Assembly: GCA_040218145.1 (NCBI GenBank)
Contig: JAVJQK010000075.1
Span: 1-64,000, forward strand
Length of the DNA: 64,000 bases
Direction of reading: 5' to 3'
Origin: Sandaracinaceae bacterium
GTDB taxonomy: Bacteria; Myxococcota_A; Polyangia; Polyangiales; Sandaracinaceae
Below, piece by piece: positions 4,767 to 28,244 of this stretch. The number at the start of each line of letters is the position of its first letter. The stretch's first letter is position 1. The position numbers and the translations under genes were made by a program. The notes beneath the pieces were generated by a model. That model made no database searches. It saw nothing but the letters and a program-made list of their open reading frames with translations, and had not been told where the DNA came from.

Positions 4767-4795
4767 CGTCTCGCCCCCTCTGCGCCTGCTCTGGT

Positions 4796-4846: not shown

Positions 4847-4855
4847 CGGCTACGG

Positions 4856-5791
4856 TCAACGCAGCGTGCCGGAAGCGGCGCGCTGCGCGAGCGTGTCCAG
4901 CAACCCGCCGAGCGGGCTGCTCTCGTTCAGGCCCGAGAGCGTCGGGCCGAGCGTCTGCTGCGCCGCCTCGATGGCTTTGTCGCGCTCGGTCGTGAGCGGC
5001 CAGAGGCGCTGATGCGAAAGCTCGGGGTCACCGAGGAGCTGCAGCGTGTTCAGCGGCGCCGGCCCCAGCGACAGCAGCAGGCGCGGCTCGGGATCCTCGA
5101 TCCAGAAGTACGCCGGGTGCGACGGCGGGAAGCCGAAGACGCGCCGCGACAGCTCGAGCCACACGAAGAGATCCACGTCCACGTGGACGGGACAGTCGAG
5201 CAGGGTCGCGCCCTTGCCCGGATCTGTCTTCGACGCGTCCTGACACGCCGTCAGGAAGGTCTGGTACGCGTAGAGATGCGCGCCCTCGCGCGCGCCGAAG
5301 AGCCGCGCGTGGACCTCGGCCGTCAGCGGATGAGACAGGGTCTTCTGTGCGATCTCGCTCGCGCGCGACAGGTCCGCGGCCTGCGGGACCGGCAAGTGCT
5401 GCGCGGCGTTCCGGAGCGCGTCGAGATCCATCTCCTTCGCCTGCGCGCCGAGCGCGACCGCGGCGTCGAGGAAGGGGCTGAACGCGATGGGCAGCGTCGA
5501 GAACGACTCGGCCGCCTGACCGGCCGGCGCGAGCGCGAAGAAGACGATCGGGAACTTGCGCCCCACGCCGTCCTCGCTCGGGATCAGCGCCGCGACGACC
5601 GTCTTGGCCGACCCGGGCGGCGTGAACACGACGCGGATCGGGTGGTCGGGCATCTCGCCCCCCGCGCCCCGCACGGCGTCGTTCGACTCCTGCACCCACT
5701 GCTCGAAGCTCCGCGCGGCGTCGTCAGCGACGTTCTGCCGAACGAAGTCTCCCTTGGCAGGAATCTTTCCGAAGAACCCCAGCTCCGCCAT
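4856..5791 (-). CDS. tagF: T6SS regulator TagF (DUF2094)
   Basis: A 311-aa TagF-like protein. The N-terminus GFFGKIPAKGDFVRQNV is the family signature, followed by the GRKFPIVFF segment. In Pseudomonas TagF holds the T6SS off after translation and binds Fha; the same role here is inferred. Its presence together with the FHA protein at 22687 supports Thr-phosphorylation control. The start has a GGAG site (CTGGAGATTCG). It leads the tagF-A-B-C run and lies 54 bases after the TatA-like gene. Confidence 0.92.
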   Translation of the reverse strand: MAELGFFGKIPAKGDFVRQNVADDAARSFEQWVQESNDAVRGAGGEMPDHPIRVVFTPPGSAKTVVAALIPSEDGVGRKFPIVFFALAPAGQAAESFSTLPIAFSPFLDAAVALGAQAKEMDLDALRNAAQHLPVPQAADLSRASEIAQKTLSHPLTAEVHARLFGAREGAHLYAYQTFLTACQDASKTDPGKGATLLDCPVHVDVDLFVWLELSRRVFGFPPSHPAYFWIEDPEPRLLLSLGPAPLNTLQLLGDPELSHQRLWPLTTERDKAIEAAQQTLGPTLSGLNESSPLGGLLDTLAQRAASGTLR

Positions 5792-12575: not shown

Positions 12576-13262
12576 TCACTCGGCGGTGGACGCCTGGCTC
12601 GTCTCTTGGATGTGCTCGACGAGGTCGTCGGCCTGGTTGGACACGCTCCACTGGAGACCGAAGTAGATGCCGAGAGACACGACCACCGCCGCGACGCTGA
12701 TCCAGACCAGCGGCATGTGGCTACGTACGCCCCCGAGGTTCTCCTGCGGCCGCGCCGCGTGCGGCGCGAGGTTCGTGTCCCCGATCATGCCGGCGCGCTG
12801 CAGGGTCGATCCGACGTCTTCCACGATAGACGCCAGCTCGATCTCCCCGCCACGAACGCGGTACTGACCTTGAAATCCGAAGAGGAGTCCGAGGTAGTAG
12901 ACCTTGAGCACTTCCATGCGCGAAGGATCTTGCCTGAGGGTCTGCAGTTTCTGAAAGAAACCTTCACCCGCGACGTTGGTGTTGAAGAGTTGCAACTGAA
13001 GGGAGCGCGGGAGCCAGTAGTCGCGCAGCTCCCCTCCCTTGCTCATGACGAGCTCGTCGGTCAGCGCCACCAGCGCATATCCGATGTCCTGCACGTCCTG
13101 CTGGGAGAAGCCGAGCTCGCTCGCTCGCCGCATCGCGCGGTCCACGAAGGAGCGCATGCGCTGATACAGCATCTCCGGCATGGGCTGCGACCGCTCATCG
13201 GCGCGGCGGATCTGCGCGAGCGCGTTGAAGACTTCCTTCGTGACCTCGTTGACGCGGTCCAT
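12576..13262 (-). CDS. tssL: T6SS inner-membrane protein TssL (DotU)
   Basis: A 228-aa DotU-like protein with a cytoplasmic helical domain (ALVALTDELVMSKGGELRDY, a family hallmark, and YYLGLLFGFQGQYR) and one C-terminal membrane helix (MPLVWISVAAVVVSLGIYFG). It lacks the peptidoglycan-binding OmpA extension seen in some TssL, so wall anchoring would need another protein. It bridges TssM to the TssK/baseplate. It lies 14 bases after tssK with a GGAGAGG ribosome site. Confidence 0.96.
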   Translation of the reverse strand: MDRVNEVTKEVFNALAQIRRADERSQPMPEMLYQRMRSFVDRAMRRASELGFSQQDVQDIGYALVALTDELVMSKGGELRDYWLPRSLQLQLFNTNVAGEGFFQKLQTLRQDPSRMEVLKVYYLGLLFGFQGQYRVRGGEIELASIVEDVGSTLQRAGMIGDTNLAPHAARPQENLGGVRSHMPLVWISVAAVVVSLGIYFGLQWSVSNQADDLVEHIQETSQASTAE

Positions 13263-13276
13263 GGCTCAGCCTCTCC

Positions 13277-14635
13277 TCAACCCTTACGGGGGATGCCCAG
13301 GAGCTCGACCTTGGTCTGCTGCGGATCGAAAGGTCTGGGCAAATAAACGGCGATCTGGCGGTCGGTGACGACGTTTCGCCAGTAGTTGTTCTCCGTCGAC
13401 ACGACGAAGTAGACGACCCCCGCCTTGACCGGGATCTCCGGGGGCGGGCGATAGGTGACCTCCACCGCGGCGCCCGGCGTGGCGGCGCTGAGGATGGAGT
13501 TGATGTCGCCCCACGACGCCATCTTGCAGAGCATCGGGAGCTTCGACGCGATCTCCTGCTCGCCCACGGGGGCGCGCACGCCGATGAGGTACTTGCTGCA
13601 GCCGATGATCCGGTCGTCGGTCATCTGGCCGAGGTACATGCCGTCCTCGCGCCCATCGAGGAACATCGAGACGTAGTGCTCCTTGACCGTCGCCTGGAGC
13701 AGCTCGGTGATCCGCGCGAAGAGGGGCTCGAACGTGCTGCGCAGGTCGTTGTAGTTGAACTTCGGCAGCGCGGCCGGGTCGAAGTCCGAGCTGAACGTGG
13801 CGAGCTGCCCGCCGAGCGAGAGCATCCACATGTAGGCCGTGCGGGGCGGCACCTCGGGCATGTCCACGAGGTGGTTCAGCACCGGCATGAAGGTGTTGAT
13901 GGCGTTGAGCAGGAGGAAGCGCGTGACGTCGCCCGCGTTGTACTCGACCGTCGCGTCGCCCCGCTCGCGCGCGGCCTCGGCGAGCGCGCGGCGGCGCGTG
14001 CTCATCAGCCGGAGCAGCCGGCGCATGCCCGCGAGGATGAACGGCGACGCCTCGATGCGGAGGCAGGCCGGGATGAAGGGCTCGTTGACCGTCAGGTTCC
14101 CGGACGCGTCGCGCGTGACCTCGGCGATCTTCAGCGCCTCGTAGTCGTCCTTCGGCTCGGTGCCGAAGAGGATCTGCAGGTTGCGCTGCGCGAAGCTGAC
14201 CTCGAGGCTCTGGCCCTCGCCCGTCAGGTCGGGCACGGAGCGGTTGGCCACGCGGAAGCGCGAGCGGCCGGCGCCGTTCTGCGCGTAGTTCGCGACCCCG
14301 TCCCGCTCACGCGGCACCGCGGCGTAGATCTCGAGCACGGTCTGCGTGTGCGGGAAGTGGCCCTCGACCGGGCGCGAGGCGGGCAGCTCGGGGTCTCCCG
14401 AGTCGCAGTCGATCACGAGCCCGTCCGGCAGCACACAGGTCAGAGCCTCGATGCGCACCTGGCCGCTCTCGAGCGCGCGTCGGTCGACCTCGACGCGGAC
14501 CACGCCCCAGTTCAGCGGCTCGAGCGCGTCGAGGCGCGAGCTCGTGAAGACCTCGTGATAGAGGTCCTGCTGCTGCATGTGCTGGGGGCTCATCAGCAGC
14601 CCCTCGGACCACACTACTCTCAGCGGCGTTTTCAT
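13277..14635 (-). CDS. tssK: T6SS baseplate protein TssK
   Basis: A 452-aa TssK protein, which links the baseplate (TssEFG) to the membrane complex (TssL-TssM). The N-terminal shoulder begins VVWSEGLLMSPQHMQQQDLY, the strongest family signature, followed by the helical region around ASPFILAGMRRLL. The C-terminal head domain ends in a beta segment (GVVYFVVSTENNYWRNV). Length is typical. The start is preceded by GAGGGAAACGCG. It sits between tssJ (45-base gap) and tssL. Confidence 0.97.
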   Translation of the reverse strand: MKTPLRVVWSEGLLMSPQHMQQQDLYHEVFTSSRLDALEPLNWGVVRVEVDRRALESGQVRIEALTCVLPDGLVIDCDSGDPELPASRPVEGHFPHTQTVLEIYAAVPRERDGVANYAQNGAGRSRFRVANRSVPDLTGEGQSLEVSFAQRNLQILFGTEPKDDYEALKIAEVTRDASGNLTVNEPFIPACLRIEASPFILAGMRRLLRLMSTRRRALAEAARERGDATVEYNAGDVTRFLLLNAINTFMPVLNHLVDMPEVPPRTAYMWMLSLGGQLATFSSDFDPAALPKFNYNDLRSTFEPLFARITELLQATVKEHYVSMFLDGREDGMYLGQMTDDRIIGCSKYLIGVRAPVGEQEIASKLPMLCKMASWGDINSILSAATPGAAVEVTYRPPPEIPVKAGVVYFVVSTENNYWRNVVTDRQIAVYLPRPFDPQQTKVELLGIPRKG

Positions 14636-14680: not shown

Positions 14681-15412
14681 TCAGGGCGCCGGAGCCGAGG
14701 GCGTTTCCGCGCTCGGGACGTCGGGCTGGGGAGTCTCGGGGGTTTCGGGGGCTTCGGGCTGCTCGACGCCGGACGCCTGCTCCTCCGCCGCGCGCTCGGC
14801 GGCGCAGATCGGGTCGTCGTCCGCGCACGGCGGCGGCGGGTACTCGAGTCGGACCGCGCCCTCGATCTGATAGTCGTCCAGCTCGAACGCGAGGTAGACG
14901 TTGGGCGGCTCGGGCGGCGCCTGGTCCGGATCCTCCTGGAGCGCCGCGCACTGCGCCTCCGCCTGCGGCGGGGGAAGCTCGAGGATGCTGCGCCACGAGA
15001 CGCCCGTCGGCCGGCGCACGACCGCCATGCCGACGATGTAGTTCGCGTCCGGGTTCCGCTCGAACTGACGGTTCAGCGTGGTGTCCGGGTAGATGGTCAG
15101 CTCGTCCTTGCCGAGCATCGCGTCGCCCAGCGTGTCCTCGTCGCTGTTCCAGATCTCCTCGAACGTCGCCGTCTCCATCGCGCCGATGTTGGCGAGCTGG
15201 TAGATGCGCACGATCGTCGGGAGCGGACGCCCGTCGGTGTCGGGGTTGGCGCGGTCGCTCGCCGCGATGCGCAGGTTGGCGTTCTCCTGTGCATCACACG
15301 CCGGCCGGGCCTGGTTCCCGTTGCAGCCAAGGAAGACACTGCAGCCGAGGAAGAGCAGCGCCGAACGCGCGGCGGCTCGCTTGGAAGTGAGGATGTTCTC
15401 GCTCGCGGTCAT
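14681..15412 (-). CDS. tssJ: T6SS outer-membrane lipoprotein TssJ
   Basis: A 243-aa lipoprotein, first gene of tssJKLM. The signal holds two possible lipoboxes in tandem (LFLGC then VFLGC), so the mature Cys is near residue 24 or 30. The fold follows TssJ order: RPTIVRIYQL-type loop (PTIVRIYQLANI), then KDELTIYPDTTLN and NYIVGMAVVRRP. TssJ tethers TssM to the outer membrane. The C-terminus has an extra acidic, Pro-rich tail of about 50 residues not usual in the family. The ATG at 15412 was chosen because longer forms put unrelated residues ahead of the signal peptide. Confidence 0.92.
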   Translation of the reverse strand: MTASENILTSKRAAARSALLFLGCSVFLGCNGNQARPACDAQENANLRIAASDRANPDTDGRPLPTIVRIYQLANIGAMETATFEEIWNSDEDTLGDAMLGKDELTIYPDTTLNRQFERNPDANYIVGMAVVRRPTGVSWRSILELPPPQAEAQCAALQEDPDQAPPEPPNVYLAFELDDYQIEGAVRLEYPPPPCADDDPICAAERAAEEQASGVEQPEAPETPETPQPDVPSAETPSAPAP

Positions 15413-15619
15413 GTCGGCTTCGCCTCGCGCGGGAGCCCATCGCCCCCGTCCGGTCCTCGTTGCGTGAAAAGCGCGTCGAGGAATTCGTTTCGCGTCGAAG
15501 CGTGCCCGATGGGCCGCCGAACGGGCAACAGAGTGACGAAGAGAGGGACGAATCCGTCGACCAGGCCCTGGATCACGTCCCCAATCTTGGGCGTCGTGAA
15601 GAAAATCGGAAACCAGGGT

Positions 15620-15646
15620 TTGACACGGGCGAGAAATGGTTATCGT
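15620..15646 (+). promoter_or_regulatory. Possible hcp promoter
   Basis: A perfect TTGACA box (15620-15625) is followed after 15 bases by TATCGT (15641-15646), about 65 bases before the hcp start. The spacer is shorter than the usual 16-18, so recognition by the housekeeping sigma factor is uncertain. It lies in the 298-base spacer between divergent tssJ and hcp; no equally good box was seen for tssJ. Confidence 0.4.
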
Positions 15647-15710
15647 CTGTGCTCGGCGGGGGGGACACGGTGTTTCACCCGCCCAGAAACAGGGAAGAAG
15701 GAGAAACATC

Positions 15711-16211
15711 ATGGCACTCAACGCTTACGCCGCGCTCACCTGGAACGGTACTGCTCTCGACGGCGACTCCACCATGAGCGAAATCGGTGGTGTCGACGTC
15801 AGTGCGGATCATATCGAGGTCTACCAGCTCAACTGGGGCACGGTCATCGGTCATGAGCGGCAGGCGTCGCTCAGCGCCGCGCACCGCACCGCGGAGCCCC
15901 TCGTCTTCGAGCAGCGCCTCGACGGCACGGTCCCGCAGTGGCACCAGGCGCTGACCGAGAACGCGACCATCGCCGGCACGTTCAAGATCTTCGACACCAA
16001 CCCCGAGGATGGCGCGACCCGCGAGCGCTTCAACATCACCATCGAGGGTGGCCGCGTGGTCTCGGTCCAGGGTGAGAGCCCCGACGCGTTCGACGCGGAC
16101 CAGTCCAACAAGCCCTGCTACGTGCGCGTGAAGGTCACGTACCACACGATCACGTACGAGGACATGGTCCTCAGCAAGGTCTACACGGACAACTGGTCGC
16201 AGAGCCGCTGA
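15711..16211 (+). CDS. hcp: Hcp tube protein (TssD)
   Basis: A 166-aa Hcp-family protein. Hcp hexamers stack into the inner tube and are exported with effectors. Visible features are MALNAYAALTWNG at the N-terminus, the VDVSADHIEVYQLNWG segment, the HQALTENATIAGTFKIFDTN stretch and the YHTITYEDMVLSKVYTDNW C-terminus. An AAGGAGAAAC site sits just before the ATG at 15711, which decides it over an upstream in-frame start. The gene stands alone between a promoter region and a strong terminator, which fits the high expression Hcp needs. Sequence divergence from proteobacterial Hcp is considerable. Confidence 0.93.
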   Translation: MALNAYAALTWNGTALDGDSTMSEIGGVDVSADHIEVYQLNWGTVIGHERQASLSAAHRTAEPLVFEQRLDGTVPQWHQALTENATIAGTFKIFDTNPEDGATRERFNITIEGGRVVSVQGESPDAFDADQSNKPCYVRVKVTYHTITYEDMVLSKVYTDNWSQSR

Positions 16212-16331: not shown

Positions 16332-16709
16332 ATGTCCAGCCGAGGCCTGCTCTCCCGGCTCTCCACGGGATCTCGCCGCGCCGACGTGGTCTCGTCGGTG
16401 GTGGACCATCTGCGGGACATGCTGAATACGCGCATGGGCGAGTCGGTGACCGTGCCCGATTACGGGCTCGTGGACTTCTCCGACGTCTGCCACAACATGC
16501 CCGAAGCGATCGGCGCCATCCAGCAGTCGATCCGTGCGACCATCCTCAAGTACGAGCCGCGCCTCAAGAACGTGAGCGTGCGCTTCGTGCCGAGCGAAGA
16601 CCCCCTGACGGTGCGCTTCGAGGTCGTCGCGCGCCTGGCGGATGCCCGCCGGAGCGTCGTCCGATTGCGAACCGCGCTGTCGGCCGGCGGCCACATGGAC
16701 ATTGAATAG
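16332..16709 (+). CDS. tssE: T6SS baseplate protein TssE (gp25-like)
   Basis: A 125-aa protein with the gp25/lysozyme-like fold that seeds the sheath at the baseplate. Key stretches are VVDHLRDMLNTRMGESVTVP, DYGLVDFSD, and the basic IRATILKYEPRLKNVSVRFV segment containing the E-P-R-L motif near residue 75. Length is normal. It is the first gene of the plus-strand run tssE-F-G-H, 67 bases before tssF. Confidence 0.95.
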   Translation: MSSRGLLSRLSTGSRRADVVSSVVDHLRDMLNTRMGESVTVPDYGLVDFSDVCHNMPEAIGAIQQSIRATILKYEPRLKNVSVRFVPSEDPLTVRFEVVARLADARRSVVRLRTALSAGGHMDIE

Positions 16710-16775: not shown

Positions 16776-18524
16776 TTGTTCAACAAGTACTACCAGAGTG
16801 AGCTGAGCTATCTCCGCGAGCTCGGCCGGGAATTCTCCGAGGCGAACCCGTCTCTCGCCGGCCTCTTCGCCGAGCAGGGCGGCGACCCCGACGTCGACCG
16901 GCTGCTCGAGGGCTTCGCGTTCCTGACCGCGCGCATCCGCGAGCGGATGGAGGACGCGGTCCCCGAGGTCGTCGACGCGCTGGCCGAGATGATCGTGCCG
17001 CAGTACACGCGCACGCTCCCGGCCTGCTCGGTGGTGGAGTTCACGCCCCAGCAGACGGCGCTGCGCGGCCGCCACCGCCTCTCGGCGGGGACGGAGGTCG
17101 GCGCGCGCCCGGTCGAAGGCACCACCTGCCTCTTCCGCACCACCGTCGACCTCGATCTGCTGCCGCTGAGCCTCAGCGACTTCGCGTTCGATCACTCGGT
17201 GGAGGCGCACCCGGAGATCCGGCTCGGCTTCCGCTGCGCGCAGTCGGCCGAGACCCTGCTCGGCGAGACCAAGAAGCTGCGGCTCTTCCTGCATGGCCCG
17301 CTCGGGCTCACCACCACGACCTACCTCTGGCTGCTCCGGCACCTCGCCGACGTGCAGTACAAGGGCTCGGACGGCTACACGCACTCGCTCGGCAAGAACG
17401 CGGTGAAGCCCGTCGGGGTCTCGCCCGAGCAGCCGATGCTCCCCTGGCCCGACCTCGCGCCGGACGGGCTGCGGGTGATGCAGGAGTACTTCACGCTGAC
17501 GCAGAAGCTGCTCTTCATCGACATCGAGGGCCTCGACAAGGTCCCGGCGGAGCACGCGACCGATCAGTTCGTGTTGACCTTCCGGTTCGATCGACCGCCC
17601 AAGCTGCCCGAGCGGCTCGACAAGGACAACTTCCGCCTGCACTGCGTCCCGGTCGTCAACCTCTTCGACATCACCGCGGACCCGGTCGCCCGCGACAATC
17701 GCGAGCACGAGTACCTCGTGCGCGCGAGCGGGGTGAACCCGCTGCACATGGAGGTCTACGAGGTCCAGCAGGTGACGGGGCTGCTCGCGAACCGGCGAGG
17801 GAGGCGAAACTACACGCCTTTCTACGGCTTCCAGCACGTGATGAAGAAGAAGGGCGAGCAAGCCTTCTTCATGACGCGGCGGGCGCGCTCGCCGATCGAC
17901 GACGGGCTCGACACCTACCTCACCGTGCTCACGCCGGCCGACGTGGAGCCGGACTTCGAGGAGGAGACGCTCAGCATCGACATCACCTGCACGAACCGCC
18001 TGCTCCCGGCGGAGCTGCGCGCGGGCGACATCTCGGTGCCGACGCCGCGCTCGCCGACCATCGCGCGGTTCAAGAACATCACGCAGGTGACCCGGCCGGT
18101 GCGGCCGCCCATCGGCGGCGAGCTGCACTGGCGTCTCGTCGCGCACCTGGCGCTCAACGTGCGCACGCTCGGCAACGTCGAGTCGCTGCAGTCCCTGCTG
18201 AGCCTCTACAACTTCCACGAAGACGCCGACCAGCAGCTCGGCCGCCAGAACCGCCTGCGGGTCGAGTCGATCCGCGACGTCGAGGTCCGCGCCGCGCGCC
18301 GGCTCATCGATCGCGTGCCCGTCCGCGGGCAGCACACGACGGTCGAGGTCGATCAGGCCGCCTTCGCGTCCGAGGGCGACGTGTTCGCGTTCGGGAGCGC
18401 GCTGGACTGGCTCTTCGCGAGCGAGACGCCGCTCAACTCCTTCCATCAGCTCTCGCTGCGCCTGCACCCGTCCGGCACCCAGATGGACTGGCGGCCGCGC
18501 ACGGGGACGCACCCGATCTTCTGA
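16776..18524 (+). CDS. tssF: T6SS baseplate protein TssF
   Basis: A 582-aa TssF, which forms the baseplate wedge with TssG and TssE. The N-terminus MFNKYYQSELSYLRELGREF and the following DPDVDRLLEGFAFLTARIRE are diagnostic. The segment PAELRAGDI and the C-terminal RLHPSGTQMDWRPRTGTHP complete the family pattern. The start is TTG with GGGAGC just upstream. It ends five bases before tssG, so the two are very likely co-translated. Confidence 0.96.
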   Translation: MFNKYYQSELSYLRELGREFSEANPSLAGLFAEQGGDPDVDRLLEGFAFLTARIRERMEDAVPEVVDALAEMIVPQYTRTLPACSVVEFTPQQTALRGRHRLSAGTEVGARPVEGTTCLFRTTVDLDLLPLSLSDFAFDHSVEAHPEIRLGFRCAQSAETLLGETKKLRLFLHGPLGLTTTTYLWLLRHLADVQYKGSDGYTHSLGKNAVKPVGVSPEQPMLPWPDLAPDGLRVMQEYFTLTQKLLFIDIEGLDKVPAEHATDQFVLTFRFDRPPKLPERLDKDNFRLHCVPVVNLFDITADPVARDNREHEYLVRASGVNPLHMEVYEVQQVTGLLANRRGRRNYTPFYGFQHVMKKKGEQAFFMTRRARSPIDDGLDTYLTVLTPADVEPDFEEETLSIDITCTNRLLPAELRAGDISVPTPRSPTIARFKNITQVTRPVRPPIGGELHWRLVAHLALNVRTLGNVESLQSLLSLYNFHEDADQQLGRQNRLRVESIRDVEVRAARRLIDRVPVRGQHTTVEVDQAAFASEGDVFAFGSALDWLFASETPLNSFHQLSLRLHPSGTQMDWRPRTGTHPIF

Positions 18525-18529: not shown

Positions 18530-19696
18530 ATGTCCGACGCATCGACCGGCGAAGTGGCCACGGGGCAGACGGAGTCCGAGCTCCCTCCCGAGCCGATCGT
18601 GGCCCTCCAGGAGCTCGCGGCGCCCGTGCTGAAGGCGGCGCCGCACTCCACGTTCTTCCACATCGTGGCGCTCCTCGAGCGGCTCTCGACCGAGGCGACC
18701 CGGGTCGGTGGAGACGGCCCCCCGGGGGACGAGCAGATCCGCTTCCGCCACGACTACGACCTCGGCTTCAGCGCGGGCGACATCACCCGCGTCGTCGTCC
18801 GGCCGCTGCCGCGCGGCCCGGAGGGCTCGCTCGAGGCGCCCAAGCCGATGTTCGAGGTGACCACGACGTTCCTCGGGCTGACCGGGATCGTCTCGCCCCT
18901 GCCGCTCTACATCGCGGAAGAGGTCCTGTTCGAGGAGAGCGACAACCCGGTCCGCCGGGACTTCCTCGACATCTTCCACCACCGCCTGATCTCGCTCCTC
19001 TATCGCTCCGTCTCCAAGTACATGCCGGCGCGGGAGCACCTGACGCACCGCGCCGACTCTTGGATGAAGCGGGCCCTCTACCTGACGGGCCTCGATCCCG
19101 AGATCCAGACGCGCGGGATGCGCGTGCACCCCTCCAAGCTGGTCCGCCTCGCGCCGCTCCTGGCCGGCCGTGGACGCGGCCCGCGCGTGCTGACGTTGGC
19201 CCTGCGCGAGGTCCTCGCGGAGGCGCTCGAGCCCGATGGCACCGTGCACATCGAGGAGTTCGCGGGCGGCTGGATCGAGGTGGATCAGCAGCAGCGCATG
19301 GCGCTCGGCGAACGAAACGCCTACCTCGGCGTCGAGGCCATCCTCGGCAAGCGCGCCTACGATCAGAGCGGCCGCTTCTGCGTGAAGATCGGCCCGCTCC
19401 ACAGCCACAACTATCAACGCTTCTTGCGCGACGGAGACATGCTCCCGCTCGTCAAGGACGTGGTCGAGCTCTGCTCGCGCGAGTCGCTCGACTTCGACGT
19501 GGAGCTGCACCTCGCGGCGGACGCCGTGCCCTCGTTCACGCTCTCGGCCGCCGAGGGAGGCTCGTCGCTCGGCCGGGACACCCGCCTGCGCGGGGCGACG
19601 CGCGCGGCCGAGGTGATGACGATCTCCGACGTCGGCAACATGGCACTCGACGACGACGAAGAGTCGGACGAGCGAGAGCCCGCCGCCGCTGAATAG
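18530..19696 (+). CDS. tssG: T6SS baseplate protein TssG
   Basis: A 388-aa TssG with the family blocks FFHIVALLERLS, IRFRHDYDLGFSAGDI, FEVTTTFLGLTGIVSPLPLY and FLDIFHHRLISLLYR. It is longer than most TssG (about 330-350) because of an N-terminal lead and an acidic C-terminal tail (LDDDEESDEREPAAAE). It lies five bases after tssF and 91 bases before tssH. Confidence 0.95.
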   Translation: MSDASTGEVATGQTESELPPEPIVALQELAAPVLKAAPHSTFFHIVALLERLSTEATRVGGDGPPGDEQIRFRHDYDLGFSAGDITRVVVRPLPRGPEGSLEAPKPMFEVTTTFLGLTGIVSPLPLYIAEEVLFEESDNPVRRDFLDIFHHRLISLLYRSVSKYMPAREHLTHRADSWMKRALYLTGLDPEIQTRGMRVHPSKLVRLAPLLAGRGRGPRVLTLALREVLAEALEPDGTVHIEEFAGGWIEVDQQQRMALGERNAYLGVEAILGKRAYDQSGRFCVKIGPLHSHNYQRFLRDGDMLPLVKDVVELCSRESLDFDVELHLAADAVPSFTLSAAEGGSSLGRDTRLRGATRAAEVMTISDVGNMALDDDEESDEREPAAAE

Positions 19697-19787
19697 AGCG
19701 CGGTGAATCGGGGCGGTGATCGGGGTTCCCCTGCCCGCCCAGCCCGCGTATGCTCGCGCTCCTGTTTCCAGCGTGGAGGGGAGAGAC

Positions 19788-22511
19788 GTGTCCGTACAGC
19801 CGAAGACGCTCGTTAACCGGATGACGCCGACAGCTCGGCAGATGCTCGAGGCCGCCATCGGGCGCGCCGCGAGCTCCGGGCACTATGAGGTGACCATCGA
19901 GCATTTCCTCGCTCAGATGGTCGAGCCGGACGACGGCGACCTCGCGGCCATCTACCAGCACTTCGGCAAGAACCGAAAGCCGCTGCAGAACCGCGTGGAG
20001 AAGATCCTCCAGCACATGAAGACGGGCAACTCGTCTCGCCCCGTCTTCAGCGGCTCGCTCTGGAAGTGGATCCAGGACGGCTGGGTCTACGGATCGCTGG
20101 AGTACGGCGCCGGGCTCATCCGCACCGGGCACCTCTTCTACACCCTCATCCGTCACCCCGGCCGCTACATCGGCGAGGTGCTCCCCGAGCTCGAGGACTT
20201 CTCGCTCGAGGAGCTCGAGAAGGATCTCGACGAGGCGCTCAGCGTCACGCGCGAGGAGTTCGAGGCCGGCGCGGTCCAGACGAGCAGCGGCGGCGGCGCG
20301 GGCGGCGGCGAAGGCGGCCCGGCCCCCCGCAAGGGCGAGGGCGCGCTCGACCGCTTCTGCACCAACTTCACCGAAGAGGTCCGGCAGGGTCGGCTCGATC
20401 CCATCTTCGGCCGGCACCGCGAGATCCGGCAGTGCGTCGACATCCTGAGCCGGCGCCGCAAGAACAACCCCATCATCGTCGGTGAGCCCGGCGTCGGGAA
20501 GACCGCCCTCGTCGAGGGCCTCGCGCACGCCATCGTGGCCGGGGACGTGCCCAAGCACATCGCCCGCTGCGAGGTGATGGCGCTCGACCTCGGCGCGCTC
20601 CAGGCGGGCGCGGCGATGAAGGGCGAGTTCGAGAACCGCCTCAAGGCCGTGATCAACGAGGTGAAGGGCTCCGACAAGCCCATCATCCTCTTCATCGACG
20701 AGGCGCACACGCTGATCGGCGCGGGCGGGCAGAAGGGCGGCGGCGACGCGGCGAACCTGCTCAAGCCGGCGCTCGCGCGGGGTGAGCTGCGGACCGTCGC
20801 GGCTACGACGTGGGCCGAGTACAAGCAGTACTTCGAGAAGGACGCCGCGCTCGAGCGCCGCTTCCAGCCGGTCAAGGTCGACGAGCCGAGCGAAGAGAAC
20901 GCGATCGTCATGCTGCGCGGCCTCCGCGAGCTCTACGAGAAGAGCCACAAGGTCCGCATCAAGGACGAGGCGATCATCGCCGCCGTCGAGCTCTCCAACC
21001 GCTACATCGCGGGGCGTCTGCTGCCCGACAAGGCGGTCGACCTCCTCGACACCACCGCGGCGCGGGTCCGCGTCGGCCGGCAGACCAAGCCCGAGTCGCT
21101 CATCGAGATCGAGGCCGAGATCGCGGCCCTCGAGCGCGCCACCCAGGCCATCCAGCGGGACGTGGAGCACGGCGAGGAGAAGCGCCGCGAGGAGCTCGAA
21201 GAGAGCCTGCAGAGCCTCGAGAACAAGAAGATCCTCCGCCAGGAGCTCTTCGAGCGCTGGCAGGTGGAGCTGGCCCAGGTGGAGGCCATCCTCCGCGAGC
21301 GCGGTGAGCTCGACGAGGAGGAGGAGGGCGACGAGGCCGAGGCGGAGGGCGACGGCAAGCCGGCCGAGGACGCCGTGAGCGAGACGGCCAAGGACGAGCC
21401 GCCGCCCGTGGCGGAGGCGCAGGCCGAGGCGTCGGCGAGCGACGGCAGCAACGGCGCTGGCCAGGTCAGCGACGACGAGGACAAGCTCATCCACGTCGAC
21501 GTGGACGCGGACGCGGTCGCGCACACCGTCTCGGTCTGGACCGGCATCCCCCTCGGGAAGATGCAGCGGGACGCGGTCGGCAACGTGCTCGCGCTCGAGG
21601 AGAAGCTGCGCCAGCGGGTGAAGGGTCAGGAGCCCGCGGTCGAGGCCATCTCGCAGGCGTGCCGCATGGCCTTCGCGGGTGTGCGCAACCCGGACGCGCC
21701 GGTGGGCGTGTTCCTCTTCGTCGGCCCGTCCGGCGTCGGCAAGACGGAGACCGCGCTCGCGCTGGCGGACGAGCTCTACGGCGGCGAGCGCTTCGTCACT
21801 CAGATCAACATGAGCGAGTACCAGGACAAGAGCGCGATCTCGGGCCTCATCGGCTCGCGCGCCGGCCTGGTCGGCTACGGCGAGGGCGGCATCCTCACCA
21901 ACTCGGTGCGGCAGCGGCCCTACTCGGTCGTGCTGCTCGACGAGTGCGAGAAGGCCGACCCCGAGGTGCTCAACCTCTTCTATCAGGTCTTCGACAAGGG
22001 AGAAATGAACGACTCCGAGGGTCGGAACATCAACTTCCGCAACACGATCTGCATCCTGACCAGCAACCTGGCCACGGACGAGATCATGAAGGCCTACGAG
22101 GGCGACGAGACGCCCGAGGTCAGCGACGTGGTCGCGCAGATCCGGCCCATCCTGAGCAAGTGGTTCAAGCCCGCGCTCCTCGCGCGCATGACCATCGTGC
22201 CGTACCGCCCGATCGACCCCGAGACGATGAAGATGATCGCGGGCCTCAAGCTCAACCGGCTCGTCCGGCGCATCCGCGAGTCGCACGGGATCGAGACGAC
22301 GTTCGAGCCGGAGCTCGTCGAGGAGCTGGCCAAGCGCTGCACCGAGAGCGAGACCGGGGCGCGCAACGTCGACCACATCCTGCGCAGCACGCTCACGCCG
22401 ATGATCGCGCAGGGCTTGCTCGAGCGCATGGCCGACGGCGACGAGCCGTCCGGGATCGAGGTGTCCATCGCCCCGAGCGGCGAGTGGCGCGTCGACGTGG
22501 ACGTGGCCTGA
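19788..22511 (+). CDS. tssH: T6SS sheath-recycling ATPase ClpV (TssH)
   Basis: A 907-aa AAA+ unfoldase of the ClpB/ClpV type that takes apart contracted sheaths. An N-terminal ClpN domain is followed by Walker A GEPGVGKT (232-239) and Walker B ILFIDEAHTL in the first ring. A coiled middle segment leads to the second ring, with Walker A GPSGVGKT (646-653) and VVLLDECEKA. An unusual acidic, Ala-rich insert of about 70 residues (near 530-600) precedes the second ring. GTG at 19788 is chosen because GGAGGGGAGAGAC lies just before it; a longer in-frame form lacks such a site. Confidence 0.96.
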   Translation: MSVQPKTLVNRMTPTARQMLEAAIGRAASSGHYEVTIEHFLAQMVEPDDGDLAAIYQHFGKNRKPLQNRVEKILQHMKTGNSSRPVFSGSLWKWIQDGWVYGSLEYGAGLIRTGHLFYTLIRHPGRYIGEVLPELEDFSLEELEKDLDEALSVTREEFEAGAVQTSSGGGAGGGEGGPAPRKGEGALDRFCTNFTEEVRQGRLDPIFGRHREIRQCVDILSRRRKNNPIIVGEPGVGKTALVEGLAHAIVAGDVPKHIARCEVMALDLGALQAGAAMKGEFENRLKAVINEVKGSDKPIILFIDEAHTLIGAGGQKGGGDAANLLKPALARGELRTVAATTWAEYKQYFEKDAALERRFQPVKVDEPSEENAIVMLRGLRELYEKSHKVRIKDEAIIAAVELSNRYIAGRLLPDKAVDLLDTTAARVRVGRQTKPESLIEIEAEIAALERATQAIQRDVEHGEEKRREELEESLQSLENKKILRQELFERWQVELAQVEAILRERGELDEEEEGDEAEAEGDGKPAEDAVSETAKDEPPPVAEAQAEASASDGSNGAGQVSDDEDKLIHVDVDADAVAHTVSVWTGIPLGKMQRDAVGNVLALEEKLRQRVKGQEPAVEAISQACRMAFAGVRNPDAPVGVFLFVGPSGVGKTETALALADELYGGERFVTQINMSEYQDKSAISGLIGSRAGLVGYGEGGILTNSVRQRPYSVVLLDECEKADPEVLNLFYQVFDKGEMNDSEGRNINFRNTICILTSNLATDEIMKAYEGDETPEVSDVVAQIRPILSKWFKPALLARMTIVPYRPIDPETMKMIAGLKLNRLVRRIRESHGIETTFEPELVEELAKRCTESETGARNVDHILRSTLTPMIAQGLLERMADGDEPSGIEVSIAPSGEWRVDVDVA

Positions 22512-22686: not shown

Positions 22687-24093
22687 ATGCTTCCGCTGCT
22701 CGTACGCATCACGAACACGCAAACCGGCGAGACCGAGCACTCCGCGTTTCCGAGCTCACCGGTCCGGATCGGCCGGAACCAGCTGAACGAGCTGGTGCTC
22801 AACGAGGGGTTCGTCTCCCAGTGGCACGCGGTCGTCCGGTTCGACGAGCACAAGGTGCGTTACGTCGACCTCGGCTCGACCAACGGCACCATGCTCAACG
22901 GCCGTCGGCTCGCGCGGCACATGCAGGTGGAGGTCGACCCGCAGTCCGATCTGCGCATCGGCCCGATCCAGCTCGCGTTCGCGCGCGCGCAGGTGACGCC
23001 CGACATGTACGCGGCGCCGCGGACGACGATCTTCAACCTGAACACGCTCGGGACCAGCGGGGACAGCGGGATCATGAACGCCACGATGGCGTTCAACCCG
23101 AACGACCCCGCCACCGAGCAGCAGAACACGATGTTCATGCCGCAGGGGGTGCCGCCCGGCGCCGCCCCGCAGGCGCCGGCGAGTCCGTCGGTGGACATGC
23201 AGCGGCTGCTGGCCATCACGGAGGCGACCAAGCCCTTCTACCAGCAGTACCGCAGCGCCTGGACGCAGGTCCTCTCCGCGCTCCGGCGGCAGCTCGAGGC
23301 GGCCCCGGGCCCGCAGCGCGCGGGGCTCGTGCTCTCGCTCTGCCAGCAGTTCCCGCAGCTGACCAAGGAGCCCGAGTTCCGGCAGCTCGCCAGCACCCTG
23401 GGCGTGGACCCCGCGGCGCTCGGCGAGGTGGACGCGAGCGCGTGGATCGACCGACTCGGCGGCTCGGCGGCGCCAGCGGGACAGCAGATCAACACCGCGG
23501 TCGCGATGGAGCGCGTCGGCGCGATCCTGGAGAGCTACAGCCAGGCCTTCGTCGAGCTTCGAAAGGGCTACGAGCAGTTCGGCGAGGAGATGGCGCTGCA
23601 GCTCGTCCAGGAGCGCACGCCGCTGCGCGACGCCCAGAGCGGCCAGGAGGTGCTCGACTATCTCCTCGACTGGGGCACCGACGGCGGAGAGCGCGTGCGG
23701 GAGCTGACGCGCGCGTTCGCGGACCTCGCGCTCCACCAGGTGGCCCTGCTGAGCGGGGTGATGGAGGGCGTGCGCAGCCTCCTCGGGACGCTCTCGCCGC
23801 AGCAGCTGAGCGGGCAGAAGAACTACCCGCTGGCCAAGAGCGGCGGCGGCGGACTGCTCGAGGGGATCTTCAACTCCAAGAAGGCCAGCCTCTGGCGCAC
23901 CTTCGCGGACACGCACCAGCGCCTCGCCGAGGAGGACCGCTTCAGCCGTGAGGTGTTCGGCCGCAACTTCGCGCGCGCCTACTTCATGGTCACGGGCGGC
24001 CACATGCAGGGCAACGACGGAAGCGGCGGCGGCCCCGACCGCACGGCGCAGCACGGCTACCACGGCTCGCAGACCTCGCCGTACAACCAGTAG
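22687..24093 (+). CDS. tagH: T6SS FHA-domain protein (Fha/TagH type)
   Basis: A 468-aa protein with an N-terminal FHA domain (about 5-95) and the helical C-terminal domain of T6SS FHA proteins (about 275-445: AILESYSQAFVELRKGYEQF, GGGLLEGIF, SLWRTFADTHQRLAEEDRFS, VFGRNFARAY). The FHA domain keeps the phosphothreonine-binding residues (RIGRNQ, SQWH, STNGT). In Pseudomonas, Fha is phosphorylated by a Ser/Thr kinase and switches on secretion, while TagF opposes it. A TagF is present here and kinases lie nearby. A Met-rich, Pro-rich linker joins the domains. No clear ribosome site is seen. Confidence 0.92.
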   Translation: MLPLLVRITNTQTGETEHSAFPSSPVRIGRNQLNELVLNEGFVSQWHAVVRFDEHKVRYVDLGSTNGTMLNGRRLARHMQVEVDPQSDLRIGPIQLAFARAQVTPDMYAAPRTTIFNLNTLGTSGDSGIMNATMAFNPNDPATEQQNTMFMPQGVPPGAAPQAPASPSVDMQRLLAITEATKPFYQQYRSAWTQVLSALRRQLEAAPGPQRAGLVLSLCQQFPQLTKEPEFRQLASTLGVDPAALGEVDASAWIDRLGGSAAPAGQQINTAVAMERVGAILESYSQAFVELRKGYEQFGEEMALQLVQERTPLRDAQSGQEVLDYLLDWGTDGGERVRELTRAFADLALHQVALLSGVMEGVRSLLGTLSPQQLSGQKNYPLAKSGGGGLLEGIFNSKKASLWRTFADTHQRLAEEDRFSREVFGRNFARAYFMVTGGHMQGNDGSGGGPDRTAQHGYHGSQTSPYNQ

Positions 24094-24110: not shown

Positions 24111-25244
24111 ATGAGACGCGGCGCGTGGTTGGCGGGGATGCTGCTCGGAGCTTGCTCCGCCGGGGGCGGCACGTCGGTGGACGCGGGGCGAAGCGCGTCG
24201 GACGGGGCCGTCGCGGACGCGGGCCGCGACGCTCGGGCGCGCGAGATCCCCGACTCCGGCTTCCTCGCGTGCGAGACCACCACCGCCTTCGCCGATCCGC
24301 TCCCGGCCACGCTGCTGTTCACGGTGGACACGAGCGGGTCGATGAACTGTCCCGCGAACGATCGGAGCTGCGCGAACGCGGAGCCGAGCCCCGCGCCGGA
24401 CGACTCGCGGCTCGACGTCTTCCGCGGCGTGCTCGACGAGGCGCTCCGCGGCCTGCCCGACGCCACGCGCGCGGGGCTGTTGACCTACCCGGTCACGTTC
24501 AGCTGCGCGCGCGACGAGCCGCGGGTGCCCATCGCGGAGCTGCGCACGGCGCGCGCGGACATCGACGCGGCCCTGTCCGCCCTGCGGCCGGAGGGCATCA
24601 CGCCGACCCACGACGCGGTGGCGATCGGGCTGTCCCGGCTGGCCGCCCGCTCCGCCGAGGAGGCGCGGTTCTTGGTGCTCGCCACGGACGGCGCGGCCAC
24701 CGTGTGCATGGGGTGTGACGCCGCGTGCTCGTTCGACGCGCTCGACCGCGACAACGAGGCGCTCATCGAGACGGTGCGCCGCGCGGCGAGCGGGGGCGTG
24801 GCGACCTACGTCATCGGCGTGCCCGGCTCGCAGGGCTATCGCGGCATCCTCTCTCGCATGGCGAACGCGGCCGGCACCGCGCGCGCTGGGTGCAGCGACG
24901 CCGGGCCGACCTATTGCCACTACGACTTGACCGACGCGGGGCTCGACTTCGCGACCGCGCTCCGCGAGGCGCTCGGGGCCATCGGGGAGTCGGTGCTGCG
25001 CTGCGAGTACGACATCCCGCCCAACCCGGACGGCAGCTTCGACCCGACGCGCGTCAATGTCCGTCTCACGGACGAGTCGGGGACGGAGACGAGCCTCCCG
25101 CGGGATCCAGGCCGCGCGGCGGGCTGGGACTACTCGGACGACGGCGCCCGCATCGAGCTCCACGGGAGCGCATGCGAGCGCGCTCGGGCGGCGACGGGCG
25201 GCCGGATCGACGTCCTGTTCGGCTGCCCGACCGAGCTCATCTGA
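24111..25244 (+). CDS. vWA-domain lipoprotein
   Basis: A 377-aa lipoprotein (GMLLGAC, Cys at 15) with an Asp/Ala linker and a von Willebrand factor A domain. The metal-site motif DTSGSM starts at residue 73, with the supporting T and D positions (GITPTHDA, LATDGAAT). vWA domains bind partners through Mg2+. Eight Cys in the second half suggest disulfides. It starts 18 bases after the FHA gene with GAGGGCC ahead, so it is probably co-transcribed. A role in the T6SS or in surface contact is only a guess. Confidence 0.85.
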   Translation: MRRGAWLAGMLLGACSAGGGTSVDAGRSASDGAVADAGRDARAREIPDSGFLACETTTAFADPLPATLLFTVDTSGSMNCPANDRSCANAEPSPAPDDSRLDVFRGVLDEALRGLPDATRAGLLTYPVTFSCARDEPRVPIAELRTARADIDAALSALRPEGITPTHDAVAIGLSRLAARSAEEARFLVLATDGAATVCMGCDAACSFDALDRDNEALIETVRRAASGGVATYVIGVPGSQGYRGILSRMANAAGTARAGCSDAGPTYCHYDLTDAGLDFATALREALGAIGESVLRCEYDIPPNPDGSFDPTRVNVRLTDESGTETSLPRDPGRAAGWDYSDDGARIELHGSACERARAATGGRIDVLFGCPTELI

Positions 25245-25334
25245 TGGCCACCCTCCGTCCTCGTCTGGCGACAGGCGGCGCGGCGTCACGCACTTTCTTC
25301 CTCCGGCGCGCGGCGGGTGGGTAGACTGCGCACC

Positions 25335-26381
25335 ATGTCTCGCGTCCGTCTCGACCACCTCCTCGCGCCCGGGCTCATCGCCGCCGCGGCGGTCTTCGTC
25401 GTGCTCGCCTGCGGCGGGAGCGACACGCCCGAAGAGCCTCCCCCCGTCTGCTACCTGTCCCACCCGGTCCCGGACGGCGGGATGGTGCGCAACCTCGACT
25501 CCAACGAGTGGGCGGACCTGGTGGTGCGCGGCTACCGCGAAGGCGCGTCGAGCAACCAGAATTGCGTCGGTGATCCCATCCAGTGGCGACCGACGGATCG
25601 CGCGTGCGAGGTGCACGAGCCCGACGACGAGCGCCCCCCGCAGGCCGTGGAGCTCACCGAGGAGTCGGTCGTGATCGGCCGGAGCGACACCGTCGCCATC
25701 AAGCCCGTCTGGGTGATCACGCATCGCTTCGAGGACGGCGACGGATTTGGCCCCGTGGCGCTCACCGAGCGCACCGCGGAGGGCGTGGCGGTCCGCGCGA
25801 TCGGCTCGCTGCGCATGCCGACGGACCGGGCGCGGCTCCGGCTGCGCGAGACGGGCGGCCAGCAGATCGTCGTCGCGGATGGAGAGCGCTGCCCGCCCGA
25901 GGACGACGGCGCGGACGACGCCCCCACCAACGTGGAGCCCGAGGAGGGCGCGGCGGAGGAAGAGGAGCCGACCTGCATCCGCTACGCGCGCATCCTGCCC
26001 GTCGTCGGCGACCAGCTGATGAGCCCCGAGCTCCGCACGCGTGAAGGCCAGTGCCTCGGGCCGGCGCAGATCTACCTCTCGCGCGAGCAGACGGTGGCCC
26101 TCGAGACCGGCTGGGAGCGCACCTTCAAGCTCGCCGCCTCCCTCGAGTACCGGGGCGGCGCCGTCATCGTGCACGAACAGGTGGTGGCCGAGGACCGCGA
26201 TCCGCGCGATCCCGGTCGACCGGCGCGCCTCTTCCGCACCACGGACGCCGACCGCGTCGTCCACCTGCGGCGCGGCGGGATGCGGAGCGAAGGCATCCCG
26301 CTCTTCGAGCGCGCGGTGCGCGCCGACGGCTCGACGCAGCTCCCCGTCGGCGAGAGCGACCGCGAGCGCGCCAGCAATTGA
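25335..26381 (+). CDS. Predicted lipoprotein, function unknown
   Basis: A 348-aa protein with a lipoprotein signal (VFVVLACGG, lipobox VLAC). The mature part has alternating hydrophobic and charged segments, an acidic, Glu-rich stretch in the middle and six or so Cys. It is not recognised. It sits between the vWA lipoprotein (91-base gap) and the fused sheath-like gene (76-base gap), all co-directional, so it may belong to the T6SS operon. Confidence 0.75.
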   Translation: MSRVRLDHLLAPGLIAAAAVFVVLACGGSDTPEEPPPVCYLSHPVPDGGMVRNLDSNEWADLVVRGYREGASSNQNCVGDPIQWRPTDRACEVHEPDDERPPQAVELTEESVVIGRSDTVAIKPVWVITHRFEDGDGFGPVALTERTAEGVAVRAIGSLRMPTDRARLRLRETGGQQIVVADGERCPPEDDGADDAPTNVEPEEGAAEEEEPTCIRYARILPVVGDQLMSPELRTREGQCLGPAQIYLSREQTVALETGWERTFKLAASLEYRGGAVIVHEQVVAEDRDPRDPGRPARLFRTTDADRVVHLRRGGMRSEGIPLFERAVRADGSTQLPVGESDRERASN

Positions 26382-26456: not shown

Positions 26457-28244
26457 GTGGCGGGCGAAATCGAAGATCGGGGCGGAGCGCAGGTTCATTG
26501 GCTGGTCGCGGGCAAGTTCGGGCTCGGCGAGCGCAAGAAGACGCTCGCGTTGACGCGGGCGGACTTCGACGACGCGCTGAAGAATCGGGGCATCGAGATC
26601 GTCGCGAGGGTGCCGGACGCGGTCGGGAGCGACGAGACGCGCACCTACACGCTGAAAGTCGAGTCGCTGAAGCACCTCACGCTGAAGCACGTGGTGGGCG
26701 CCATCCCCGAGCTGACCGAGCTCGCCGCGAAGGCCGACCAGGTCGCGAAGCTGAAGGACCCCAGCGTCGACTCGCTGAGGGAGGTCGTCGGCGAGGGCAA
26801 GCTGCTCGACGCCATGAAGCAGCTGGTGGCGCCGGACGAGGCGAAGCCTGCCGGCGGCGGTGACGGCGCGAGCGGCGACACGGACGCGATCTTCGAGAAG
26901 GCCGAGGTCCAGAAGAAGACCGCCAAGAGCGCGATCAGCATGTTCGTGAAGGCGACGTCGAGCGCCAAGCCGAAGGCCAAGCCGGTCTCGCGACAGCTCC
27001 GCGATCTCGTCGAAGAGGTCGTCTGGGGCATCGCGGCCGACGTGCTGCGCTCGGACGAGGTCCGCGAGGTCGAGGGCTCGTGGCGGGGGCTGCGCTTCCT
27101 GCTCACCGAGTGCCCCAAGGACTCGCAGATGGAGGTCATCCTCCTCGAGACCGACCCGGAGCACGTGGTGGAGGATCTCTCCACGCGCGAGCGCGGCGAC
27201 GACATCGACGAGCCGGACTGCATCTTCGTCCCGCATGACTTCCGCACGACGGAAGGGCTGCGCGAGGTGGCCGACCTCGCCGAGCAGGAGCTGATCCCGA
27301 TCGTGGTCGGCGCCGCCCCGCAGCTCTTCGGGAGCGACGACCTGCAGGCGATCCCGGACGCCTTCGAGGCGCTCGAGCGCGCGCGCAACGAGGATCTCCC
27401 GGAGTGGGCGACGGAGTGGGACGCGCTGCGCATGGCGGAGTCCACCCGCTGGCTCGCGGTCGCGCTCAACCGCGTGGCGCTACACGCCGAGGGCGCGGGC
27501 GTCGCGCAGCGCACGGTCTTCGGGTCGGGCGTCTGGGCCGTCGCGGCCATGCTCGCGGCGAGCTTCCGCGCCACGGGCGGCTTCGCGCGCATCTTCGGCA
27601 AGGCGGGCTCCCTGCGCGCCCCGGCCAGCCACACCATGGGCGCCGGCCGCTACGCGGACACCGCGGCGCCGACCGAGGCCTTCTACGCCATCCAGCCGTG
27701 CGAGCTGCTGGCCAAGAACGGCATCTTCGGCATCGGCAGCGCGCGCAACTCGGACCAGCTCGCGCTCATCAAGGCTTCTTGCGTGCGTGGCGCGGCCGAC
27801 GCGGTGCCGCTGCCTGCGCAGATCCTCACCGGGCGCGTCGTGCGCTTCGCGAGCTGGGTGAAGGCCCAGCTCCCGGAGGGGTGCGACAGCAAGACGGCGA
27901 ACGACATCTTCGTGAGCGCGGCGAGCGTCTTCCTGTTCCCCGGTCAGGAGGCGGCTGCGCACGTGCGCGCGGCCACGACGAACATCGACGGCGAGGCGCA
28001 CGTGATGGTGCGCGCGGCGGCCAACCCGGCCATCGCGTCCATCCCCTTCGAGATCGCCTTCCCGCTCCCCCTCGGCTGGAGCGTGCCTGCGCCCGAGCAG
28101 AGCGCGGAGGAGAGCGCGGCGCCCAAGCCGGACGCGGGCGACGCGGCCACCGTCGAGGGCGAGACCACGGCCGACAAGAAGGACGGCGTCGGCCTGTCCG
28201 GCGGGAGCGTGGGATTCGACGCGAGCCTCGGCAAAGACGACTGA
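26457..28244 (+). CDS. Fused TssB-TssC-like sheath protein
   Basis: A 595-aa protein. Residues about 12-110 follow TssB in order (VHWLVAGKFGLGERKKTLAL, TRADFDDAL, VESLKHLTLKHVVGAIPELT). Residues about 190-545 follow TssC, with EVEGSWRGLRFLL for its ESTWRGLKHL, IPIVVGAAPQLFGSDDLQAI for its APEMFG region, and ESTRWLAVALNRV for its core strand. PTEAFYAIQPCELLAKNGIF and ARNSDQLALIKAS also line up with TssC. An Ala/Gly linker joins the halves, and the tail is acidic. The start GTG has GGGGAG ahead. Separate, complete tssB and tssC exist at 1706 and 198, so this is a second sheath-fold protein. It could cap or modify the sheath, or belong to a different contractile device. Homology was judged by eye. 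Confidence 0.8.
   Translation: MAGEIEDRGGAQVHWLVAGKFGLGERKKTLALTRADFDDALKNRGIEIVARVPDAVGSDETRTYTLKVESLKHLTLKHVVGAIPELTELAAKADQVAKLKDPSVDSLREVVGEGKLLDAMKQLVAPDEAKPAGGGDGASGDTDAIFEKAEVQKKTAKSAISMFVKATSSAKPKAKPVSRQLRDLVEEVVWGIAADVLRSDEVREVEGSWRGLRFLLTECPKDSQMEVILLETDPEHVVEDLSTRERGDDIDEPDCIFVPHDFRTTEGLREVADLAEQELIPIVVGAAPQLFGSDDLQAIPDAFEALERARNEDLPEWATEWDALRMAESTRWLAVALNRVALHAEGAGVAQRTVFGSGVWAVAAMLAASFRATGGFARIFGKAGSLRAPASHTMGAGRYADTAAPTEAFYAIQPCELLAKNGIFGIGSARNSDQLALIKASCVRGAADAVPLPAQILTGRVVRFASWVKAQLPEGCDSKTANDIFVSAASVFLFPGQEAAAHVRAATTNIDGEAHVMVRAAANPAIASIPFEIAFPLPLGWSVPAPEQSAEESAAPKPDAGDAATVEGETTADKKDGVGLSGGSVGFDASLGKDD

What the first reader, a model, noticed from the sequence alone, without database searches (positions are those of the whole stretch)
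26457..28244. Natural fusion of TssB-like and TssC-like sheath halves next to a complete T6SS
Seen: one 595-aa frame aligns by eye with TssB in its first 110 residues and with TssC from about 190 to 545, including the SWRGLRFLL, APQLFG and SARNSDQLALIKAS blocks. Separate intact tssB and tssC exist 24 kb away in the same locus. Known: T6SS sheaths are built from separate TssB and TssC. Inference: a fused protein could be a sheath end-cap, a length or handedness modifier, or the sheath of a second, smaller contractile device. I know of no described role for such a fusion.
Basis: partly seen in the sequence, partly recalled or inferred. Interest (0 to 1): 0.9.

Follow-up and report, generated by a model that had tools for sequence, protein, structure and literature searches.

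The report
One-chain sheath paralogue in T6SS
This gene joins degenerate copies of the two proteins that build the contractile sheath of a bacterial stabbing weapon (the type VI secretion system) into one chain; it belongs to a conserved, apparently undescribed family found beside the normal sheath genes in many predatory soil and marine bacteria, and its missing linking strands suggest that it caps or regulates the sheath rather than building it.

Summary
The 595-aa gene at 26457-28244 has a TssB-like first fifth (Pfam VipA 5e-5, residues 27-102) and a TssC-like body (Pfam VipB 2.9e-17), 24 kb from intact tssB and tssC in a complete T6SS locus. It is not a recent or accidental fusion. It belongs to a fast-evolving paralogue family found in 55 of 184 Polyangiales genomes, elsewhere in Myxococcota, and in Rhodobacterales and Burkholderiales plasmids, where it is annotated simply as a sheath large subunit. 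Every fusion starts at TssB profile position 20 or later (45 canonical TssB start at 2-9), and none matches the TssC C-terminal handshake domain. Canonical TssC sits in the same genome in 54 of 60 cases. The TssB-TssC interface helix is kept, and most members keep an LLDxxV motif like the ClpV-binding helix. On a tree all fusions lie on one side of a branch (88-93% bootstrap), apart from TssC and Rhizobium ImpD. Best reading: a non-polymerising sheath-like protomer that binds the canonical sheath, probably at an end, and is recycled by ClpV. That function is inferred; the structure model was too poor to use. A second contractile device is unlikely.

The parts
26457..28244 (+). Gene for the one-chain TssB-like/TssC-like protein (595 aa), here called FUS
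26493..26831 (+). TssB-like part (residues ~13-125; Pfam VipA match 27-102); starts at TssB beta2, no beta1 donor strand upstream even when read back to the preceding stop
26832..26909 (+). Linker with TDAIFEKAEV, in the place of the TssC N-terminal ClpV-binding helix (LLDxxV-type in 16 of 25 non-redundant relatives; degenerate here)
26898..27782 (+). TssC-like sheath core (residues 148-442; Pfam VipB, TIGR03355)
27783..28091 (+). C-terminal ~103 residues in the place of the TssC handshake domain; not recognisable as VipB_2
28092..28241 (+). Low-complexity tail ending in GVGLSGGSVGFDASLGKDD; a tail of this kind is shared with G417 and G421 of the same family
198..1679 (-). Canonical tssC (493 aa, VipB plus VipB_2)
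1706..2209 (-). Canonical tssB (167 aa)
2418..4859 (-). tssA (ImpA_N, two stretches, plus VasJ C-terminal domain)
4856..5791 (-). tagF (TagF_N)
8786..12538 (-). tssM
12576..13262 (-). tssL
13277..14635 (-). tssK
14681..15721 (-). tssJ (start probably further in)
15636..16211 (+). hcp (tssD)
16332..16709 (+). tssE
16776..18524 (+). tssF
18530..19696 (+). tssG
19716..22511 (+). tssH/clpV
22687..24093 (+). FHA-domain tagH
24111..25244 (+). VWA-domain putative lipoprotein
25317..26381 (+). Putative lipoprotein of no Pfam family (U354); family linked to T6SS loci

Best explanation
It is a single-chain, sheath-like protomer descended from a TssB-TssC pair, kept as an accessory subunit of the same T6SS that has its own normal sheath. 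Shown: it has the TssB beta2/helix part and the TssC core in one chain; it lacks the TssB N-terminal donor strand (window clade, G163 and the short clade); its C-terminal domain is no longer recognisable as the TssC handshake domain; it is one conserved family. Inferred: the two halves dock on each other inside the chain to make one sheath-shaped protomer. Because the strand-swap parts that knit sheath rings together are lost or changed, it cannot grow into a sheath. It docks onto canonical TssB/TssC instead, most likely as a ring at one end (a terminator or cap, or a modified first ring), and so controls where the sheath stops, how stable the end is, or when it contracts. ClpV may remove it through the TssC-type helix kept in the linker.
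For: Always in or beside T6SS genes wherever neighbours could be read, in the window last in the hcp-tssE-F-G-clpV-fha strand. Canonical TssC found in 54 of 60 fusion-bearing genomes. TssB profile match starts at position 20-53 in 14 fusions against 2-9 in 45 canonical TssB, the same with a local profile. No fusion frame gives a VipB_2 match in 60 genomes. In published sheath structures TssB beta1 and the TssC C-terminal strand are the donors that join neighbouring protomers (PMC5807055), and each subunit's two linkers go to the ring nearer the baseplate (PMC5813253), so a subunit without them should not propagate the lattice. The TssB helix that binds TssC (PMC3840085) is kept: L86 invariant, L89 at least 90%. 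LLDxxV-type motif in 16 of 25 linkers against 9% of shuffled linkers; canonical TssC of the same genomes carries LLDEIL and V. cholerae VipB binds ClpV by LLDEII (PMC4239648). Purifying selection.
Against: No interaction, localisation or mutant data. The structure prediction failed (mean pLDDT 36), so fold and docking are not shown. The larger Polyangiaceae clade carries a Gly-rich N-terminal segment at about the right distance that could be a changed beta1, so loss of the donor is not universal. The C-terminal domain is placed where VipB_2 lies and may still be a divergent version of it. The ClpV-type motif is degenerate in the window's own protein. TssA, the known distal-end protein, is already present in this locus.
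Confidence: 0.42

Rival explanations
1. Off-sheath regulator or adaptor: a sheath mimic that binds ClpV, TssA or the FHA protein TagH and sets how much sheath is made or recycled, without being part of the sheath.
For: Gene close to the FHA gene in several clades (window, L017, L018, L028, L030, L031, L034). Rhodobacterales members add 500-670 aa of acidic sequence with repeated LDDLLGGL-type motifs (11, 5 and 6 matches against shuffled means 2.7, 0.8 and 1.9), like many weak docking helices. Short members lack the whole C-terminal handshake domain.
Against: The sheath core is kept at length, including the TssB-TssC interface, more than a docking peptide would need. No contact with FHA is shown, and adjacency is not universal (L019, L021, L024, L033).
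Confidence: 0.22
2. Mixed-in sheath subunit: FUS replaces some TssB/TssC protomers along the sheath and changes contraction, stiffness or handedness.
For: A 3-residue insertion in the VipA N-terminal linker gives an assembled but non-contractile sheath (PMC5813253), so an altered linker is a known way to change contraction. Many FUS have altered N-termini.
Against: FUS is far more divergent than co-resident TssC (WIN_FUS to nearest FUS 1.59 changes per column, WIN_TssC to nearest TssC 0.32), and handshake parts are missing or unrecognisable, which would break the lattice wherever it is inserted.
Confidence: 0.13
3. Sheath of a second, smaller contractile device encoded in the same locus.
For: One chain resembles the one-chain sheaths of phages and other contractile injection systems. 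A different full-length TssB-TssC chain is the only sheath gene found in G155, next to TssK-, TssF- and TssL-type genes.
Against: No second tube, baseplate or spike set in the window. Canonical sheath genes nearly always co-occur. Handshake parts not recognisable. No phage-type sheath match in Pfam.
Confidence: 0.05
4. Decaying duplicate with no function.
For: Long branches and lost domains.
Against: Open in 55 Polyangiales genomes and other classes, dN well below dS, conserved family-specific residues.
Confidence: 0.03

Closest known systems
TssB/VipA and TssC/VipB sheath subunits
   Same: Homologous over the TssB beta2-to-helix part and the TssC core (VipB domain); interface helix kept
   Different: One chain, 20-25% identity, no TssB beta1 in the window clade, no recognisable VipB_2 handshake domain; present in addition to the true pair
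Agrobacterium TssC40/ImpD (second TssC; essential and not redundant, PMC3702570)
   Same: A second TssC-type gene in the same T6SS, divergent from the main TssC
   Different: Rhizobium ImpD has no TssB part and keeps VipB_2; on the tree it falls with canonical TssC
Rhodobacterales plasmid proteins annotated 'T6SS contractile sheath large subunit' (e.g. WP_311202233.1) and Eleftheria terrae WP_301260645.1
   Same: Same architecture (TssB part from position ~27, VipB, no VipB_2); full-length family-profile matches E 9e-51 to 2e-57; a second tssC-type match lies in the same records
   Different: Long acidic repeat tails; C-terminal DMDAELxALL motif; no function known
TssA/TagA sheath-end proteins
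   Same: The proposed position at a sheath end
   Different: Unrelated domains (ImpA_N, VasJ); the window has its own TssA at 2418-4859
G155 929-aa TssB-TssC chain (L037:8258-11047)
   Same: Natural fusion of TssB and TssC
   Different: Keeps beta1 and VipB_2, lies with canonical TssC on the tree, and is the only sheath gene found in its genome: a true fused sheath, a separate event

Membership tests
TssB (TIGR03358 / PF05591) | Curated equivalog score | tested here: not met
   17.5 of 97.25 bits; PF05591 23.6 of 24, 26.3 in the genome search
TssB (TIGR03358 / PF05591) | N-terminal beta1 donor strand | tested here: not met
   Profile match starts at 50; no strand-like sequence upstream to the stop
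TssB (TIGR03358 / PF05591) | Helix that binds TssC | tested here: met
   Aligned and conserved, L86 invariant and L89 at least 90%
TssC (TIGR03355 / PF05943 / PF18945) | VipB core domain | tested here: met
   PF05943 63.1 bits, cut-off 27
TssC (TIGR03355 / PF05943 / PF18945) | VipB_2 gp25-like handshake domain | tested here: not met
   No match in the window protein or in any fusion frame of 60 genomes; profile-profile score no better than column shuffles
TssC (TIGR03355 / PF05943 / PF18945) | N-terminal ClpV-binding helix | tested here: inconclusive
   Family 16 of 25 against 9% of shuffles; window protein degenerate
TssC (TIGR03355 / PF05943 / PF18945) | Forms sheath with TssB | not testable with these tools
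   needs purification or microscopy
FUS family (defined here) | TssB part from beta2, TssC core and no VipB_2 in one chain, apart from TssC on the tree | tested here: met
ImpD/TssC40 | TssC paralogue with VipB_2 and no TssB part | tested here: not met
TssA/TagA | ImpA_N domain | tested here: not met
Phage/pyocin/eCIS one-chain sheath | Phage-type sheath profile match | tested here: not met
   No such Pfam match; phage records give two weak TssC-type hits only

The most novel reading that the evidence does not exclude
A widespread, previously unrecognised T6SS subunit: a sheath terminator (or first-ring adaptor) made by fusing TssB to TssC and disabling the strand swaps, so that sheath length or end stability is set by a sheath mimic.
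Probability: 0.25. Interest if true: 0.82.

Novelty: new variant of a known kind. Interest (0 to 1): 0.62.

Why it matters
How the T6SS sheath is started, stopped and protected at its ends is an open question; the composition of the distal-end cap was left unclear in PMC5813253. A conserved one-chain sheath paralogue with altered strand-swap parts, encoded beside the normal sheath in many predatory Myxococcota and on marine and soil proteobacterial plasmids, is a concrete candidate for such a role and has been hidden under the annotation 'sheath large subunit'. It can be tested by one gene deletion and one tagged copy.

Tried and rejected
Structure prediction from the only alignment rows allowed (window FUS, L016 FUS, window TssB and TssC) gave pLDDT 36 and was not used for fold searches. 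Viral-contig scans gave no relatives. Idea that the U354 lipoprotein is a FUS-specific partner: rejected, it also occurs in T6SS genomes without FUS (G037, G090, G126, G213, G269). Idea that FUS is ImpD/TssC40: rejected. Idea that every FUS lacks beta1: withdrawn, since Polyangiaceae members have a Gly-rich N-terminal segment at a matching distance. Idea that the window's C-terminal Gly motif is that same segment moved to the other end: supported for G421 (0 of 5000 shuffles), weakly for G417 (22 of 5000), not for the window itself (1248 of 5000). Homology of the C-terminal domain to VipB_2 could not be shown.

Full report
What is there. The frame at 26457-28244 is a real gene of 595 codons with third-position GC 0.95. 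Pfam gives VipB (PF05943) at E 2.9e-17 and VipA (PF05591) at E 5e-5 on residues 27-102; the NCBIfam sheath equivalogs match far under their cut-offs. A five-member profile of its relatives finds the solved VipA/VipB and TssB/TssC chains by sequence. The rest of the locus is a complete T6SS: tssC, tssB, tssA, tagF, tssM, tssL, tssK, tssJ on the minus strand and hcp, tssE, tssF, tssG, clpV, FHA tagH, two putative lipoproteins and this gene (FUS) on the plus strand. The genome has only one other TssC and one other TssB and 14 VgrG-type matches elsewhere. The nearest named record (99.7% identical protein) is a MAG called Sandaracinaceae bacterium MED-G138.

It is a family. A protein search found full-length relatives at 37-39% identity in other Myxococcota, and profiles found more. 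In all 184 genomes of the order held here, 92 have some TssC-type match and, by my count of the table, 55 have a FUS. FUS differs from canonical TssC by score and by starting inside a TssB part. Neighbourhoods are T6SS loci wherever they could be read, often close to the FHA gene. FUS-type proteins with the same architecture are also annotated as 'sheath large subunit' on plasmids of Leisingera, Qingshengfaniella and Parasedimentitalea, where the chain is 1063-1244 aa with long acidic LDDLL-rich tails, and in the betaproteobacterium Eleftheria terrae (592 aa). On trees of the TssC part, all FUS lie on one side of a branch from canonical TssC and ImpD (support 93/97 and 88/85). One origin is therefore compatible with the data but not proven. 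FUS branches are several times longer than those of TssC in the same genomes.

What it has lost and kept. In the phylum-wide sample, 45 canonical TssB match PF05591 from profile position 2-9, while 14 fusions match only from position 20 or later. A local TssB profile gives the same picture for all 16 fusions tested (position 35 or later). In the window clade, G163 and the short clade there is no room or no strand-like sequence for TssB beta1. The larger Polyangiaceae clade carries a Gly-rich stretch (such as GVLGDEFRFHVGEDGG) at about the distance of beta1, which may be a changed donor strand; this is inference from spacing only. No FUS frame in 60 genomes matches VipB_2, while canonical TssC in 54 of them does. 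The six exceptions are G422 (same species as the window, 84% complete), G338 (86%), G291 (64%), G370 (its TssC frame is short), G140 and G417; for the last two I have no explanation. The short clade simply ends before that domain. For the window clade, a domain of about 100 residues in that place is conserved with the Polyangiaceae clade (E 3e-9) but scores no better than column shuffles against VipB_2. Kept are the TssB helix that binds TssC (PMC3840085; L86 invariant), the VipB core and, in 16 of 25 non-redundant members, a D-x-LL-x-x-V motif in the linker (9% in shuffled linkers). Canonical TssC of the same genomes carries LLDEIL at its N-terminus, and V. cholerae VipB binds ClpV through LLDEII (PMC4239648).

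What it probably does. In known sheaths, TssB beta1 and the TssC C-terminal strand are the donors that stitch protomers together (PMC5807055), and each subunit's two linkers reach the ring nearer the baseplate (PMC5813253). A protomer in which those parts are missing or changed should bind an existing sheath surface but not extend it. Together with co-occurrence with the normal sheath, this favours a minor subunit at a sheath end, possibly recycled by ClpV. The alternatives are an off-sheath regulator of ClpV, TssA or FHA, a mixed-in subunit that changes contraction, or (unlikely) a second device.

What is known. The held literature has no TssB-TssC natural fusion. The closest precedent for a second sheath-type gene is Agrobacterium TssC40/ImpD, essential and not redundant (PMC3702570). 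Its Rhizobium counterpart has no TssB part and keeps VipB_2, so FUS is not ImpD. A separate full-length TssB-TssC chain with beta1 and VipB_2 was met in G155; related long frames occur in G292, G414, G374 and G406. That is a different event and probably a true fused sheath.

Noticed in passing
L037:8258-11047 (G155), with similar long frames L079:2549-5251, L080:2289-5069, L082:2010-5480, L083:4411-7740: A second kind of natural TssB-TssC chain, 900-1157 aa, with VipB_2 kept (TssB part detected in L037, L079 and L083). In G155 it is the only sheath gene found and lies with TssK-, TssF- and TssL-type genes: perhaps a T6SS with a one-chain sheath.
   Followed up: partly
L101:6973-10707, L102:7459-10650, L103:4414-7662, L104:8944-10722: Rhodobacterales and Eleftheria members of the FUS family with long acidic tails of LDDLL repeats and a shared C-terminal DMDAELxALL motif.
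   Followed up: partly
window 28185-28241: C-terminal tail GVGLSGGSVGFDASLGKDD; in two relatives of the same family (G417, G421) the tail resembles an N-terminal Gly-rich motif of the Polyangiaceae FUS, as if a terminal motif had changed ends.
   Followed up: partly
window 25317-26381: Putative lipoprotein without Pfam family, recurrent in Myxococcota T6SS loci and next to FUS in three other loci (L017, L018, L034).
   Followed up: partly
window 24111-25244: VWA-domain putative lipoprotein with weak similarity to gliding protein CglB, inside the T6SS operon.
   Followed up: no
window 28477-30642, minus strand: Ser/Thr protein kinase gene convergent with FUS; with the FHA gene it could be the T6SS phosphorylation switch.
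   Followed up: no
window 2418-4859, minus strand: TssA with two ImpA_N stretches, an internally repeated N-terminal part.
   Followed up: no
G000 (window's genome), contigs C9 to C143: 14 VgrG-type genes (PF05954) scattered over the genome for apparently one T6SS.
   Followed up: no
L025 (G090): A divergent T6SS locus with two TssK-type genes around a short TssC.
   Followed up: no
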